DNA from: Promethearchaeota archaeon
Lineage (GTDB): Archaea > Asgardarchaeota > Lokiarchaeia > Sigyniarchaeales > SOKP01
Direction: 5' to 3'
Assembly (NCBI GenBank): GCA_019057795.1
Contig: JAHLWS010000062.1
Coordinates: 1 to 64,000, forward strand
Length of the DNA: 64,000 nt
Made by a program: the position numbers and the translations under genes. Shown here piece after piece: positions 4,116 to 58,218 of the stretch. Numbering within the stretch: position 1 is the first letter of the stretch; every line of letters begins with the position of its first letter. The notes beneath the pieces are model-generated. The model was not told the origin of the DNA, did not search any database, and saw nothing but the letters and a program-made list of their open reading frames with translations.

Positions 4116-4559
4116 ATGAAGAGACCTAGATATAAAATCATATCCTTTCAAGAGTTGAAACAAGGTACGAATGGTGTGTTTGAGCAATATGATGAAATTC
4201 AATTAGCATATCTTTATGGCTCATATGCTAACGCAACTCAAACAGAATTTAGTGATATTGATATAGGAATTGTTTTAGTAGAAAGTTTTAAAGAATCAGC
4301 TCTTTACTTTGCTGAATTAAGCGTTAAGATTGAAAAAACTTTAAATTCCCAAATTAATGTAGATTTAAGAATTTTAAATGAAGCAACACCTCGATTTTTA
4401 TTTCAAGTAATCAAAAATAATAAAATTCTATATTGCAAGAATAAAAAATTTATGCATGAGTATGAACTAAAGGTTATGTATGAGTATCAAGATATTAAAC
4501 CAATGTTAGACATGTACGATAAGATTTCAGTAATGGAGGTATTTAATGATGAAAATTGA
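4116..4559 (+). CDS. MntA-like nucleotidyltransferase antitoxin
   Basis: A 147-residue minimal nucleotidyltransferase. The polymerase-beta-fold active site is visible as YLYGSYANA (Gly35-Ser36) followed by SDIDIGI with the two metal-binding aspartates at 47 and 49. Its stop overlaps the start of the HEPN gene by 14 bases, the usual toxin-antitoxin arrangement. In the characterised MntA/HepT system the nucleotidyltransferase adds AMP to a tyrosine of the HEPN toxin and so silences it; the partner here carries the matching RX4HXY motif, so the same mechanism is likely. The function of this particular pair (phage defence, plasmid-type maintenance) is inference. Confidence 0.85.
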   Translation: MKRPRYKIISFQELKQGTNGVFEQYDEIQLAYLYGSYANATQTEFSDIDIGIVLVESFKESALYFAELSVKIEKTLNSQINVDLRILNEATPRFLFQVIKNNKILYCKNKKFMHEYELKVMYEYQDIKPMLDMYDKISVMEVFNDEN

Positions 4560-4989
4560 TCGTGATGTTCTTTTAACTAGATTTAAAAAAATGGACAATT
4601 TAATTCAAAATTTAAAAGAAATAAAGAAAAAACCCAAAGATGAATTCCTCTCTAATTACCTCCTTCATTTAAGCACTCAAAGAGCCTTAGAAATGTGTAT
4701 TAATATTTGTATCGATGTCGGAAACCATATTCTTTCAATGAATAAGAACGGAAAACCAGAAACTTATAGTGATATTTTCACTGAATTATCGAAACTAGGT
4801 TTAATAAATAAAGAATTGAAAGAAATTCTTATAAAAATGGTAAAGTTCCGTAATCTTTTAGGCCATTTGTATATGGAAATAAGCAACGAAAAAATATATG
4901 AAATTCTCCAAGAAAATCTTGATGATTTCAATCTTTTTAAAAAAGAGATATATTCGAAATTTAAAGAACAATTATTAAATGAAAAGTAA
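4546..4989 (+). CDS. HepT-like HEPN ribonuclease toxin
   Basis: A 147-residue all-helical HEPN protein (DUF86/HepT type). The catalytic RX4HXY motif is seen as RNLLGHLY, with Arg102, His107 and the modifiable Tyr109. HEPN proteins of this group are metal-independent RNases that cleave RNA, including tRNA ends, and are inactivated by AMPylation of the motif tyrosine. Translation is coupled to the preceding nucleotidyltransferase (14-base overlap; tandem ATG codons at 4546 and 4549). All motif residues are present, so the toxin looks intact. Confidence 0.85.
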   Translation: MMKIDRDVLLTRFKKMDNLIQNLKEIKKKPKDEFLSNYLLHLSTQRALEMCINICIDVGNHILSMNKNGKPETYSDIFTELSKLGLINKELKEILIKMVKFRNLLGHLYMEISNEKIYEILQENLDDFNLFKKEIYSKFKEQLLNEK

Positions 4990-5022: not shown

Positions 5023-5871
5023 TTAAACAGCTACAAATAACCTGCCATTGACACCTATATTTAATTCCCCAGTCTTCTTCGAAATAGCAGAATGGTTTTT
5101 CTTTACAGAATGGTCTCCACTGTACTCAATAAATTTCCCGGTTATTTTTTCACCATTGAATAGTTCGATTTCTTTAACTTCCCCAATTTTTATAAATGAT
5201 GGAAGTACGGGGGTTTTTCCCTTAATCACTATAGTTCCTTTTATTTGGTCTGCTCCAACGCAGCGGTCTGCATCGCCTTCAACTACGATGGTCGCACCAT
5301 GTGAATGAAGCCCTAAAAACGCTGCTGCTCCGCCACAATATAAAGTAGGGAATCTTTTAGCAATTCTAGAACCGTTTGCCCATATCATTGATTCGCTACC
5401 AACTTTGCCTTTAACTCGAATCACACCATTTCTCATTCCCTGCCAGAATCCTCTATATGCCGCGCCTGTATAATGGCCAGAATCTCCATTGATCTCAAGT
5501 TCACCACCTTTAAGCATAGCTCCAGCCCAATCGTCGGCATTTCCATTAACTACGATTTTTCCCCCTGACATGTTATTTCCTACGTGCATACCGACATCAC
5601 TATTAATCACGATTTCTCCTCCTTTCATTTTTTCTCCAATACGCTTTACGTTAGATACATCGCCATCTATAATAATTTTAGTGTCAGTAACTTCAGCTGA
5701 TTTTCCAGAAACATCAAAAAAATCGCCAATAGTCGTTAGTTCTTTAGCGTAATATAACGGTAATTTCTTGATATCGCTTAAAGATTTCCCAGCGAAATTA
5801 TCTGGTGTGATACTATCTGCTTCTAAAGGAAAATCTAGTTTCTTTTTTATTTTTAACTTAATATCGGCCAA
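5023..5871 (-). CDS. fwdC: Formylmethanofuran dehydrogenase subunit C
   Basis: A 282-residue protein made largely of Gly-rich GxxMxxGxIxxxG repeats that form a right-handed beta-helix homologous to the glutamate synthase C-terminal domain (for example GEIVINSDVGMHVGNNM, GGELEINGDSGHYTGAAY). FwdC is the scaffold subunit linking FwdA, FwdB and FwdD. The start is a TTG at 5871, three bases after the fwdB stop; the ribosome-binding sequence GGTGAG overlaps the end of fwdB, so translation is coupled. It is the last gene of the operon mvhD-fwdGFDBC. Confidence 0.92.
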   Translation of the reverse strand: MADIKLKIKKKLDFPLEADSITPDNFAGKSLSDIKKLPLYYAKELTTIGDFFDVSGKSAEVTDTKIIIDGDVSNVKRIGEKMKGGEIVINSDVGMHVGNNMSGGKIVVNGNADDWAGAMLKGGELEINGDSGHYTGAAYRGFWQGMRNGVIRVKGKVGSESMIWANGSRIAKRFPTLYCGGAAAFLGLHSHGATIVVEGDADRCVGADQIKGTIVIKGKTPVLPSFIKIGEVKEIELFNGEKITGKFIEYSGDHSVKKNHSAISKKTGELNIGVNGRLFVAV

Positions 5872-5874
5872 GCA

Positions 5875-7229
5875 TTACTCACCTATCTTTTCTTTCACTT
5901 TTTCAATTAATCTTTCTAATATTTCTTTGTCAGACAAACATTCTCCAGGTGGTTCCTTTACTTTTCTCAATCTTAAAGGAACATTATCCATACGGTAAGC
6001 AGTTCCCTCGCACTCAATACCGGCAAACGCTGCAGGCAAAATTACGTCGGCAAATGCAGATGTCGGCGTTTCATGCGGTTCTATTGAAATTAGGGGATGT
6101 TTGAATAAATTTCTTACTGATGCTGCGGGAAAATTACTTGCCGGATCAGAGGCTACAATTAATGCTGCGTCTACTTCGTCTCTCATTAGAAGATCAACAG
6201 AAGAGAATTCTCCAGGATTATAACGCGGATATCCTCTTGAAAAGTCAATAGAATACGCGTAACCTGTATTCCAAGTAAAAACTTGATTTGCTCCAGCGAC
6301 ATTGTAATGCCCTCGCATGGGTGTCAAAAGAAATTTAGTATGGTCGTTCAGCTCCCTAACTAAGCATATTGCTGTGTCAACGTTGCGATGATGTGCTAAT
6401 GTTTGCGTTAAACCCATGCCAAAGAAGATTACTCCAAACTTACACGACTTTAATATTTTCACTAGTTCTTTCATTTTTTCTAATGGAACGCCAGCAACCT
6501 CTTTTACGTCTAGCTCTGTACCTCTTACCATTGCTCTAATTGCATTTAATAGTTCGTAATCCTCGTTAGGATTTATTTTAATGTATAAGTCTGCAATTTG
6601 GGCAGTGTGAGTATTTCTCGGGTCTACAACTACGATAAATCTATCGTTTCTACCATCAGTTCTAAAATAACCCCTCACAAAATTGCTGTATCTACTTAAA
6701 TGTCGAGGGTGAGCATGAACTGGATTAGACCCCCAAAAAATTACTAAATCGGCTCTATTTTTATATTCTCCTAAAGTGGACGATGGCGCACCGACATCTT
6801 GAATTGCTAATAAGCTAGGACCGTGACAAACCGAAGCTGTATTATCCAAAAGAGCGTTTAATGTTTCTGCTAACTCAACGCCTTTACTTTGGGCTTCACA
6901 TTCAGTGCTGGAGAATCCATACAATAAAGGTCTTTTGGCATTAACTAATATCTCGGCAGCTTTATCAAGTGCTTCGTCCCATGAAACTTCTTTAAACTCT
7001 CCTTTATTTTTAATTAAAGGCTTTAAATAACGATGCTCGCTATTTGAGGATAAGAATTTTTTACTGCCGATTTGGCAAGCGTTTCTCACTTCAACAACTT
7101 TATTTTGTTTAACATCCATATCTATTTCAAGATCGTCGCAAAATGTGCCGCATACCGCAAAATACTGATATAGTATTATCTAAACGGGCAAGGAACATCA
7201 TAGACGGTCTTAAGCTTTCTTTCTACCAT
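5875..7229 (-). CDS. fwdB: Formylmethanofuran dehydrogenase subunit B, split by a 29-nt intron
   Basis: Catalytic subunit of formylmethanofuran dehydrogenase, a W/Mo bis-pterin enzyme reducing CO2 to formate. Reading from the ATG at 7229, placed 6 bases after AAAGGAGGG, gives MVERKLKTVYDVPCPF and then a stop. The rest of the protein, starting CGTFCDDLEID, lies in another frame 29 nt on. Joining 7229-7182 to 7152-5875 restores the family motif C-x2-C-x3-C (Cys14, 17, 21) with the fourth ligand at RNAC (Cys42), and gives 441 residues, the normal size. The metal ligand at the position that is Cys or Sec in the family is Cys101 (STECEAQ, codon TGT), so this is not a selenoprotein. Further motifs: VIFWGSNPVHAHPRH and VASDPASNFP. 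Starting at the internal ATG (7119) would lose three of the four cluster ligands. See the intron entry. Confidence 0.9.
7153..7181 (-). other. Predicted BHB intron in fwdB (29 nt)
   Basis: The segment interrupts fwdB after codon 16. In the sense strand the 5' exon end CCGU (7187-7184) pairs with GCGG at the intron end (7158-7155) to form a four-base helix. Two three-base bulges flank it: UU^A (7183-7181) and UA^U (7154-7152). The outer exon helix is UUGC (7191-7188) with GCGG (7151-7148). The inner helix is AAUACU (7177-7172) with AGUAUU (7166-7161) and a five-base loop. Archaeal splicing endonuclease cuts between the second and third base of each bulge; those two positions are exactly the junctions needed to restore the protein. 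Splicing itself is inferred. Confidence 0.85.
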
Positions 7230-7242
7230 ATTTTTCCCTCCT

Positions 7243-7638
7243 TTAAGCTTCTTTCAATTTTCCTATTAATTCTAAAGCATCTAATACCTTTCCGCTTTTA
7301 ATAACTTCAACCTTTGCTTTCATCCCTTTATATGTTGGAGTGCCACACCCTTGTGAATCGGGATTCACAAGCTGATTAGCCCATGGTCCCATCGGAACAA
7401 ATAATATCCCAGGATGAGGTCCCTCTTCTGAAATCGTAGAGTAGACTATGACTTCTCCAAAATCAGTTGTAATCTTAACGGGAGTTCCAACAAGGCAATC
7501 TAGTTTTTTAAAGTCGGTTCTATCGAAGGCACAGATACCCGCAGCTCGGACATTTTCCTTTGATACTTTTCCACCTTCAAGAGCTACTCCCTGGTTAATA
7601 GTTCGACCAGTTAATAAAATAAAATTTTCTAAACTCAT
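7243..7638 (-). CDS. fwdD: Formylmethanofuran dehydrogenase subunit D
   Basis: A 131-residue protein of the molybdopterin dinucleotide-binding fold (the C-terminal domain of larger Mo/W oxidoreductases, separate here). Visible features are the LTGRTINQG start, the VGTPVKITTDFGEVIVYS strand pair, and the FVPMGPWANQLVNPDSQGCGTPTYKG segment that contacts the pterin. It completes the active-site cavity around the cofactor held by FwdB. It starts at an ATG with AAAAGGAGGG upstream, one base after the stop of the polyferredoxin gene, and its stop lies 13 bases before the fwdB ATG. Confidence 0.92.
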   Translation of the reverse strand: MSLENFILLTGRTINQGVALEGGKVSKENVRAAGICAFDRTDFKKLDCLVGTPVKITTDFGEVIVYSTISEEGPHPGILFVPMGPWANQLVNPDSQGCGTPTYKGMKAKVEVIKSGKVLDALELIGKLKEA

Positions 7639-9213: not shown

Positions 9214-10038
9214 TTATTTTAAAAATTTCAAGTGAACTATTTTAGCTGCTTTCACATGTTCAGATTTCTTAATCGCAGATATCGACTTTTTATCCCAATT
9301 AGGATTTATTTTTGTTCTAGCCCAAATTGTATACCAATCATGTATTTGAATATTAGGCGACCACTTAGGAAAAATCTTCGTTGGGTTGCCAACTCCAAAG
9401 TGTAATCTCAATTCTTTTTCACCAGCTTTTTTGGCTCTCAGGTTGACAACTTTATTAGCAAGTTTAGAGGTCGCATCAAAAATCATTTCAGCTCTTGGGA
9501 ATCGTTTCGCCATTTCAATAATTAAAGATGATATTTCATCTTCTTTAAAATAATAAACAAAACCACCAGCAATGAAAAAGATTCCATTGTTTAGGTCATA
9601 TTCAATTTCGTCGAACCAAGAATAATCGAGGGCAGATTTTGAAATGAATTTATTTCTTTCGGATTCAGATAAGAGGGTTTTACGGAATGAGATAGCTGAA
9701 GGCAAATCTAAATCATACCACTTGATTGTACCATTATCAACTCTATAAAAAGTAGTGTCTAATCCGGCTCCAATATTAACGATTGTAGCTGATGGATGGT
9801 TTTCAATAAATTCTTTAACCGCTATATCAAAATTTTTAGCTCTTGCCATTAATCCTAATCCACGCCATTCACCAAGATAATTTTTGATATTTGAGAAATC
9901 ATAATCCACATTTTTAATGATATCTATAGCTTTTAAATCGTTTAGTAATTCAGGATATAACTGACTATATTTCGCTCGAGCCCATAATGGCCCTAACATT
10001 GTTTCCTCCACTTTTTCATCAAAAATCGTATCAGTCAT
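9214..10038 (-). CDS. SAM-dependent methyltransferase, leucine carboxyl methyltransferase-like
   Basis: A 274-residue protein with the COG3315/LCMT layout: the MLGPLWARAKYSQLYPELL N-terminus, the ARAKNFD helix, the SAM-binding VNIGAGLDTTFYR loop (about residues 86-98), KWYDLDLPSAISFR with the acidic residue that binds the ribose, and IFFIAGGFVYYF followed by an acidic stretch. Such enzymes methylate carboxyl or hydroxyl groups, often of peptides or polyketides; the substrate here is unknown. Its ATG overlaps the stop of the membrane protein gene (ATGA), so the two are co-translated. Confidence 0.75.
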   Translation of the reverse strand: MTDTIFDEKVEETMLGPLWARAKYSQLYPELLNDLKAIDIIKNVDYDFSNIKNYLGEWRGLGLMARAKNFDIAVKEFIENHPSATIVNIGAGLDTTFYRVDNGTIKWYDLDLPSAISFRKTLLSESERNKFISKSALDYSWFDEIEYDLNNGIFFIAGGFVYYFKEDEISSLIIEMAKRFPRAEMIFDATSKLANKVVNLRAKKAGEKELRLHFGVGNPTKIFPKWSPNIQIHDWYTIWARTKINPNWDKKSISAIKKSEHVKAAKIVHLKFLK

Positions 10039-57132: not shown

Positions 57133-58218
57133 TCAATTGGATTCCATTTCACCTGGAATTTTTTCACGTTTAAATCTTACCATAGTTATAGCGTCATTGG
57201 GGCAAGTAACAGCACATAATCCACAGCCTAAGCACTTATCCCTGTCTATGTGAGCAACCCCATCTACAGTTATCGCATTAAATTTGCATCGTTCTAAACA
57301 TGTCTCGCAGCCCGTACATTTTTCTTCGTTTATAAGTGATATATAATTTGCTTTGGCGATAGCTCTAGGGTTGTCAAATCGAGTAATTCCTTTTAACATT
57401 CCACAACAACATTCGCAACACGCACAGAGTATATTGCAGTTAGTCGCATCGTTATCTGTAGCGTGAACTAATCCAATTTGTGCAGCCTCTTCAGTTAGTC
57501 TTATTATATCTTCTTTAGAAGCTGCTTTTACATCTGGGTCTCCCATTTCCAATACTGCTTTAGCGTTTGGTCCCAGCAAAATACAATTGTGAATGGGATA
57601 TTTATCTTTACACTCTCTAATCCCTTCAACTTCCGCTCTTTTTCTGCAAGGGCAAGGAATTACAGCAAAATCCGTATTGGATTCAATAATATTATAAACC
57701 TCTTCAATTGGAATTATCTGATGACCAGGTTCAACTTGTTCGCTAACAGTTAAAACTCGCATGCGAGGCGTGCCATCCCTTTTATTTTCCCATGTCTTAT
57801 AATACTTATCGTTGGTGTAAAACTCTCTACTTAATTGGGCAAACTTAACAATGTCGTCTCTGGAATAATTTTCTTTTATAATAAAAGGCATGTCGTAAAT
57901 AAACAAAGGCGTTGGTAAAGAGTAATAATTCCCTATTTTTATTAGAAATCCTCTCTTACAGGTTTCTGCAAGTTTGGCAGATATTTCTGCTTTTTCCACA
58001 CCAATCTTTTTCGAAAGTTTTGATAATGATGTAGATTTTGGAAAAACTTCTAAATGGAGAATAATCTTAATTATTTCTGGATCGTACATTAAACTTAAAT
58101 ATTCAAGATACTTTTCGGTTGGCTCTCCATTCTCGTCCTTAGGAAATGATTGAGCTTTATATTTTAATTTTTTAGTAAACTCAATTAAATTTTCCTGATG
58201 TTCTTTTGAGGCTATCAT
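57133..58218 (-). CDS. HTH and iron-sulfur-binding protein
   Basis: A 361-residue protein. The first 110 residues look like a winged-helix region (LSKLSKKIGVEKAEISAKLAETCKRGFLIKIG). The middle carries a Cys-rich segment CPCRKRAEVEGIRECKD, PIHNCILLG and NCNILCACCECCCGML. The end is a dicluster ferredoxin: CTGCETCLERC and CLGCGLCAVTCPNDAI. The combination appears in uncharacterised archaeal and bacterial regulators or oxidoreductases. It should be redox active and in the cytoplasm. The start has no clear ribosome-binding site. The function is not known. Confidence 0.8.
   Translation of the reverse strand: MIASKEHQENLIEFTKKLKYKAQSFPKDENGEPTEKYLEYLSLMYDPEIIKIILHLEVFPKSTSLSKLSKKIGVEKAEISAKLAETCKRGFLIKIGNYYSLPTPLFIYDMPFIIKENYSRDDIVKFAQLSREFYTNDKYYKTWENKRDGTPRMRVLTVSEQVEPGHQIIPIEEVYNIIESNTDFAVIPCPCRKRAEVEGIRECKDKYPIHNCILLGPNAKAVLEMGDPDVKAASKEDIIRLTEEAAQIGLVHATDNDATNCNILCACCECCCGMLKGITRFDNPRAIAKANYISLINEEKCTGCETCLERCKFNAITVDGVAHIDRDKCLGCGLCAVTCPNDAITMVRFKREKIPGEMESN

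What the first reader, a model, noticed from the sequence alone, without database searches (positions are those of the whole stretch)
7153..7181. 29-nt bulge-helix-bulge intron inside protein-coding gene fwdB
fwdB is interrupted after ...PCPF (ATG at 7229 with an ideal Shine-Dalgarno sequence) and resumes, out of frame, at CGTFCDD. The homology-derived junctions (7182/7181 and 7153/7152) restore C-x2-C-x3-C with Cys14, 17 and 21. Independently, the RNA folds as a canonical BHB: central helix CCGU/GCGG, three-base bulges UU^A and UA^U, outer helix UUGC/GCGG, inner stem AAUACU/AGUAUU. Both predicted cut sites, between bulge bases 2 and 3, fall exactly at the homology-derived junctions. Known: archaeal BHB introns are cut by the tRNA splicing endonuclease and in mRNA are documented in only a few genes (for example cbf5 of some Thermoproteota). 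Inference: a catalytic C1 enzyme of an Asgard-type archaeon depends on tRNA-type splicing.
Basis: partly seen in the sequence, partly recalled or inferred. Interest (0 to 1): 0.95.

Follow-up and report, generated by a model that had tools for sequence, protein, structure and literature searches.

The report
Tiny tRNA-type intron interrupting archaeal fwdB
A 29-base segment that breaks a metabolic enzyme gene in a Lokiarchaeia archaeon looks like a real intron cut out of the messenger RNA by the tRNA-splicing machinery, and four related genomes carry their own 29-base versions in the same few codons, which suggests that such introns are gained again and again in a protein gene.

Summary
Removing 7153-7181 (minus strand, 29 nt) restores a 441-aa FwdB whose cysteine motif (CPFCGTFC) matches solved FwdB. 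Four close relatives lack exactly these 29 nt. Four further Lokiarchaeia genomes carry inserts in the same few codons: one at the same site, three at a second site 7 nt downstream. All five inserts are exactly 29 nt, differ in sequence, contain in-frame stops, and place the frame-restoring junctions between bases 2 and 3 of bulge-helix-bulge (BHB) bulges. Codons flanking the intron strengthen exon-exon pairing in the five carriers (combined p 2.5e-5); 46 intronless orthologs show no such bias. Each carrier has intronless sister genes; the tree needs five changes. The genome encodes two EndA-family subunits, RtcB and predicted intron-bearing tRNAs. Known precedent in coding mRNA: cbf5 of Crenarchaea; cbf5 shows no interruption in the 64 of 65 relatives with a strong match. 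Splicing itself is not shown: no RNA evidence was available. Among 383 comparable ORFs of this genome only fwdB is interrupted this way. Verdict: a real BHB mRNA intron (about 0.88), a new variant of a known kind because it is recurrent, of fixed size, and sits in a hotspot.

The parts
7182..7229 (-). fwdB exon 1 (codons 1-16, MVERKLKTVYDVPCPF), with Shine-Dalgarno GGAGGG just upstream
   Evidence: homology to 441-aa orthologs
7153..7181 (-). 29-nt BHB intron AGATAATACTATATCAGTATTTTGCGGTA; contains in-frame TAA as the second codon after the junction
   Evidence: (absent in four relatives)
5875..7152 (-). fwdB exon 2 (CGTFCDDLEID... to stop); with exon 1 encodes 441-aa formylmethanofuran dehydrogenase subunit B
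   Evidence: TIGR03129 628.7 bits; 5t5i_B
7184..7187 (-). 5' strand of the BHB central helix (CCGU, in exon 1); its partner GCGG lies in the intron at 7155-7158
7243..7638 (-). fwdD (adjacent operon gene)
   Evidence: NF042908, 106 bits (below the model's curated cut-off of 175)
5023..5871 (-). fwdC (adjacent operon gene)
   Evidence: TIGR03122, 227 bits
7641..8390 (-). FwdF-like polyferredoxin (adjacent operon gene)
   Evidence: NF042909, 108 bits (below the model's cut-off)

Best explanation
7153-7181 is an archaeal bulge-helix-bulge intron in the fwdB mRNA. The pre-mRNA folds so that exon 1 and exon 2 pair on both sides of the insert and form the outer and central helices; the splicing endonuclease (EndA, here inferred to be an (alpha-beta)2 type with the specificity-broadening loop) cuts each 3-nt bulge between bases 2 and 3; RtcB is inferred to join the exons. 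This restores the reading frame and the CxxCxxxC motif of FwdB. Unspliced mRNA yields only a 17-residue peptide (MVERKLKTVYDVPCPFR). Such 29-nt introns were gained recently and repeatedly at two sites 7 nt apart in this gene within one Lokiarchaeia family. Shown: insert, frame restoration, same-size inserts in four other genomes, BHB geometry, exon-pairing bias, presence of the enzymes' genes. Inferred: cutting, ligation, function of the spliced protein, mode of gain.
For: Clean 29-nt insertion against four relatives at about 90-93% nt identity in the blocks holding fwdB. Same-site 29-nt insert of different sequence in G055 (WORC5), and 29-nt inserts 7 nt downstream in G050, G016 (CSMAG_2741), G099; all spliced products fit orthologs. 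Central helix 4/4, 4/4, 3/4, 4/4, 4/4 exactly at homology junctions; joint shuffle frequencies 0.0002, 0.0036, 0.012, <0.0002, <0.0002. Exon 1/exon 2 duplex stronger than synonymous resampling, Fisher p 2.5e-5, none in 46 intronless orthologs. Synonymous changes of the window against its sisters cluster in codons 9-25 (p 5e-6 to 0.008), not between sisters; C17 codon TGC in 5/5 against 7/46. All five introns contain in-frame stops. Two EndA-family proteins and one RtcB; predicted tRNA introns in the same genome. Asgard rRNAs circularise in metatranscriptomes, consistent with EndA/RtcB activity (PMC12918454); soil Asgards carry many tRNA introns (PMC11291895).
Against: No RNA reads. For the two site-A introns the BHB dominates only with 30-45 nt flanks and loses to other folds with 60-90 nt. 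In G050 one central pair is G-A, and in G016 the MFE extends the central helix over the 3' bulge, so these would need relaxed recognition. The synonymous pairing bias is individually weak in three of the five genes (p 0.04-0.12). EndA catalytic residues were read from alignment only; the alpha-like subunit has Phe-Gly where some homologs have Tyr-Gly.
Confidence: 0.88

Rival explanations
1. Recent inactivating insertion: fwdB is becoming a pseudogene and the hairpin is incidental.
For: The insert is absent from all close relatives and causes a frameshift plus stop.
Against: Four other inserts of the identical 29-nt length in the same codons, frames intact over the rest of the gene, few non-synonymous changes (15-20 against 42-86 synonymous codons), exon pairing bias, cut-site match.
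Confidence: 0.05
2. Programmed translational bypassing: ribosomes hop over 29 nt and the segment is never removed from the RNA.
For: Short gaps with a hairpin and an early stop codon resemble known hops in outline (own knowledge: phage T4 gene 60).
Against: No matching take-off and landing codons in any of the five (TTT/GTA, TTT/GTT, GGA/GAA, GGA/GTA, GGA/GTA); exon-exon pairing favoured outside the gap.
Confidence: 0.03
3. Assembly or sequencing artefact.
For: MAG data; the window's own reads were not available; contamination estimate 7.5%.
Against: Inserts in five separate genomes, including named MAGs from different projects (WORC5, CSMAG), with different sequences, equal length and structured junctions.
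Confidence: 0.02
4. The downstream ORF is translated from an internal start (ATG 7119) as a shortened FwdB and the insert is irrelevant.
For: A 414-aa ORF starts at 7119.
Against: It would lack Cys14, Cys17 and Cys21 of the cluster motif conserved in FwdB structures and in the orthologs read; no ATG, GTG or TTG lies between the upstream stop and the conserved CGT in that frame.
Confidence: 0.02

Closest known systems
cbf5 pre-mRNA BHB intron of Desulfurococcales and Sulfolobales (Crenarchaea), PMC2738675
   Same: BHB intron inside a conserved coding sequence at a catalytic residue; predicted cuts between bulge bases 2 and 3 match exon borders; linked to hetero-oligomeric EndA
   Different: Different gene and phylum; Lokiarchaeia cbf5 itself shows no interruption; fwdB introns are all 29 nt, at two neighbouring sites, and each carrier has intronless sisters, whereas cbf5 introns are thought to share one origin
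HVO_1309 5'-UTR BHB in Haloferax volcanii, PMC7714728
   Same: EndA acts on an mRNA
   Different: Located in the 5' UTR, not inside the coding frame
Archaeal tRNA introns at canonical and non-canonical positions
   Same: BHB geometry, EndA/RtcB pathway; predicted tRNA introns are present in this genome
   Different: The host RNA is a protein-coding mRNA
IRE1/RtcB splicing of XBP1 and HAC1 mRNA (eukaryotes; own knowledge and PMC4090602)
   Same: Non-spliceosomal mRNA splicing with a tRNA-type ligation step
   Different: Other endonuclease and signal; no BHB motif

Membership tests
Archaeal BHB pre-mRNA intron (cbf5 type) | Insert interrupts a conserved ORF; removal restores the ortholog sequence | tested here: met
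Archaeal BHB pre-mRNA intron (cbf5 type) | Central helix of about 4 bp flanked by two 3-nt bulges on opposite strands | tested here: met
   strict in G055, relaxed details in the window, G050 and G016; context-dependent for site A
Archaeal BHB pre-mRNA intron (cbf5 type) | Cut sites between bulge bases 2 and 3 coincide with homology-derived borders | tested here: met
   all five introns
Archaeal BHB pre-mRNA intron (cbf5 type) | Host encodes hetero-oligomeric EndA and RtcB | tested here: met
   two PF01974 proteins of about 200 aa, one alpha-like with His and with Lys/Arg of the loop (compare PMC12397907), one lacking the His; RtcB; the complex itself is inferred
Archaeal BHB pre-mRNA intron (cbf5 type) | Spliced cDNA observed | not testable with these tools
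   no transcript data
Archaeal BHB pre-mRNA intron (cbf5 type) | Cleavage by EndA in vitro | not testable with these tools
   needs a bench experiment
Self-splicing group I/II intron | Ribozyme core of some hundred nt | tested here: not met
   insert of 29 nt
Programmed translational bypassing | Matching take-off and landing codons | tested here: not met
FwdB (formylmethanofuran dehydrogenase subunit B) | Full-length match above curated cut-off | tested here: met
   TIGR03129 628.7 bits, cut-off 327.8, profile 1-421/421

The most novel reading that the evidence does not exclude
The 29-nt fwdB introns are a minimal mobile element of Lokiarchaeia: a BHB intron family of fixed length with a similar 5-nt loop (all ending in TC) that moves between species and re-inserts at a conserved cysteine motif, perhaps by reversal of EndA/RtcB splicing followed by reverse transcription, or by short gene conversion.
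Probability: 0.25. Interest if true: 0.92.

Novelty: new variant of a known kind. Interest (0 to 1): 0.8.

Why it matters
BHB introns in archaeal mRNA coding sequence were described for essentially one gene (cbf5; PMC7714728 says so as of 2020). A second gene, in the phylum closest to eukaryotes, with repeated recent gains across one family, makes intron gain directly observable in a non-spliceosomal system: sister genomes with and without the intron can be compared base by base. It also implies that a core C1 enzyme subunit is missed or truncated by standard annotation in these MAGs and that EndA in Asgard archaea may act on mRNA.

Tried and rejected
A search for further intron-like insertions by cross-tblastn of 0.88 Mb of the window's genome (383 ORFs comparable) with 1.2 Mb of G053 and pieces of four relatives found only fwdB; the HdrA/MvhD break on C80 is a fusion versus two separate genes. 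A 31-nt insert in G025 after CHGPSLLA has a 10-bp hairpin but its BHB-type cuts do not restore the frame, so it was not counted. G029 has a deletion plus frameshift, not an intron. A cbf5 intron was looked for in 65 family genomes: no split match; 64 have a match over the cut-off without a stop (two of them cut short at a contig end) and G039 has only a weak match. A covariance model was not built because MAFFT put gaps into the structural register. The literature held no Asgard mRNA BHB intron; most subscription papers and preprints were not searchable.

Full report
What is there. On the minus strand, fwdB starts at 7229 behind AAAGGAGGG, runs 48 nt (MVERKLKTVYDVPCPF), meets AGATAATACTATATCAGTATTTTGCGGTA (7181-7153), and continues to the stop at 5875. 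Joined, the product is 441 aa. It matches TIGR03129 over the whole profile with 628.7 bits against a cut-off of 327.8, and the alignment to solved FwdB (5t5i_B) runs through CPFCGT-LCDD. Neighbours are fwdD, an FwdF-like polyferredoxin and fwdC. The genome (4.95 Mb, 87 contigs) has one other FwdB-like protein, 35% identical, on C80; most family members also have it, so it is not an obvious replacement.

Comparison with relatives. Four genomes (G014, G022, G010, G004) align over this region, at about 90-93% nucleotide identity in the blocks that hold fwdB, and lack exactly the 29 nt. Of 228 Asgard genomes, 139 have a strong FwdB match, and only genomes of the window's family show matches that start at residue 16. 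Reading those loci gave four more inserts: G055 (named record WORC5) at the same place (site A, CCGTTT^AGGTAGAATCTTATCGATTTATCGCGGTT^TGCGGG), and G050, G016 (CSMAG_2741) and G099 seven bases downstream (site B, GCGGAA^ATTAAATGGCGATTCGCTCTTTACCGAAA^CTTTATG, GCGGAA^ATAAATTGCATATCGCAATTTTATCGTAA^CATTATG, GCGGAA^AAAAATAGCACATCGCTGTTTTACCGTAA^CTTTATG). All five are exactly 29 nt. G055 and G050 splice to 441-442 aa; G016 and G099 are cut by contig ends but in frame as far as they go.

Structure. Taking the frame-restoring junctions as given, the four bases before the 5' bulge pair with the four before the 3' bulge at 4/4, 4/4, 3/4, 4/4 and 4/4; shuffling each insert reproduces this helix together with an equally stable hairpin in 0.02%, 0.36%, 1.2%, under 0.02% and under 0.02% of cases. 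The homology junction therefore falls between bulge bases 2 and 3 on both sides in every case, as in known BHB substrates (PMC2738675). Hairpin loops, by my own pairing of the printed sequences, are five bases and all end in TC. Caveats: for the window and G055 the BHB fold dominates with 30-45 nt of flank but not with 60-90 nt, while the three site-B introns are stable at every length tried; in G050 one central pair is G-A, and in G016 the helix can extend over the 3' bulge.

Signs of function in the exons. The 45-nt exon ends pair with each other more strongly than synonymous resampling predicts in the intron-bearing genes (Fisher combined p 2.5e-5; single p values 0.041, 0.070, 0.001, 0.119, 0.010), while 46 intronless orthologs average z near 0 at both sites. 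Against its four sisters the window's synonymous changes concentrate in codons 9-25 (p 5e-6 to 0.008), which sister-to-sister comparisons do not show. The codon for Cys17 is TGC in 5 of 5 carriers and 7 of 46 others (p 0.0003). Selection for pairing explains this; a short gene-conversion tract brought in with the intron is an alternative. All five introns have in-frame stops, four of them within the first three codons read from the junction.

History. A DNA tree of 51 orthologs built without the first 30 codons needs five changes of intron state, and forcing either site's carriers into one clade is rejected (AU p 5e-72 for A, 9e-4 for B). Each carrier has intronless sister genes, so the gains are recent and multiple, or the introns moved horizontally. 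The site-B introns of G016 and G099, from different genera, are 23/29 identical while their exons are 74.9% identical. That is suggestive of transfer of the intron, but it rests on one pair.

Machinery. The genome has two PF01974 proteins of about 200 aa. One resembles the Aeropyrum pernix EndA chain 3p1z_B and keeps its His region (LEHSAF), the RKKF lysine and the loop motif K-P-R aligned to Lys44/Arg46, residues linked to broad substrate range in PMC12397907. The other lacks the His and looks structural. An (alpha-beta)2 enzyme is inferred. RtcB is present. ARAGORN predicts introns in three of five tRNAs on one contig. Published Asgard work reports circular rRNAs consistent with EndA/RtcB (PMC12918454) and high tRNA intron counts (PMC11291895).

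How general. Cross-comparison of 383 ORFs of this genome with relatives found no second case. cbf5, the known precedent, shows no interruption in the 64 of 65 family genomes with a match over the cut-off. The phenomenon is rare and centred on fwdB as far as could be seen; most of the genome was not compared.

Mechanism and limits. Most likely EndA excises the 29 nt and RtcB joins the exons before or in competition with translation; because the intron begins right after codon 16 and carries stops, unspliced mRNA gives only a 17-residue peptide, so splicing efficiency could set FwdB output. That regulatory idea is speculation. No RNA, proteome or read data were available, so splicing itself is inferred from comparison.

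Noticed in passing
L124 (G025:C35) about 9740-9775: 31-nt insert with a 10-bp hairpin right after CHGPSLLA of fwdB (catalytic Cys region); canonical BHB cuts do not restore the frame. Unexplained: error, pseudogene or an unconventional intron.
   Followed up: partly
L125 (G029:C45) about 57440-57470: fwdB with an internal deletion and frameshift after LKSH; not intron-like.
   Followed up: partly
window 4116-4989 (+): Two adjacent 147-aa ORFs read by eye as a nucleotidyltransferase/HEPN-type pair (motif YGSYA..SDIDIG; not tested with a profile); this stretch aligns in G014 and G022 but falls in an alignment gap in G010 and G004, so it seems variable between close relatives.
   Followed up: no
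G000:C80:105960-107240: Second FwdB-like gene, 35% identical, uninterrupted, also in most family members; its complex was not examined.
   Followed up: no
G053:C1:446455-448900 and G000:C80:40450-40680: HdrA-like and MvhD-like proteins fused in one G053 ORF but separate in G000 and at a second G053 locus (names from sequence, not profile-tested).
   Followed up: partly
G000:C70:4423-4527, 7176-7278, 124970-125071: ARAGORN predicts tRNA-Thr, tRNA-Ser and tRNA-Asn genes with introns of 23, 5 and 13 nt; placements not checked for BHB.
   Followed up: no
G033:C164, G087:C145, G076:C156: FwdB-like genes with one in-frame TAG, TAA or TGA; the TGA may be selenocysteine, the others were not examined.
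   Followed up: no
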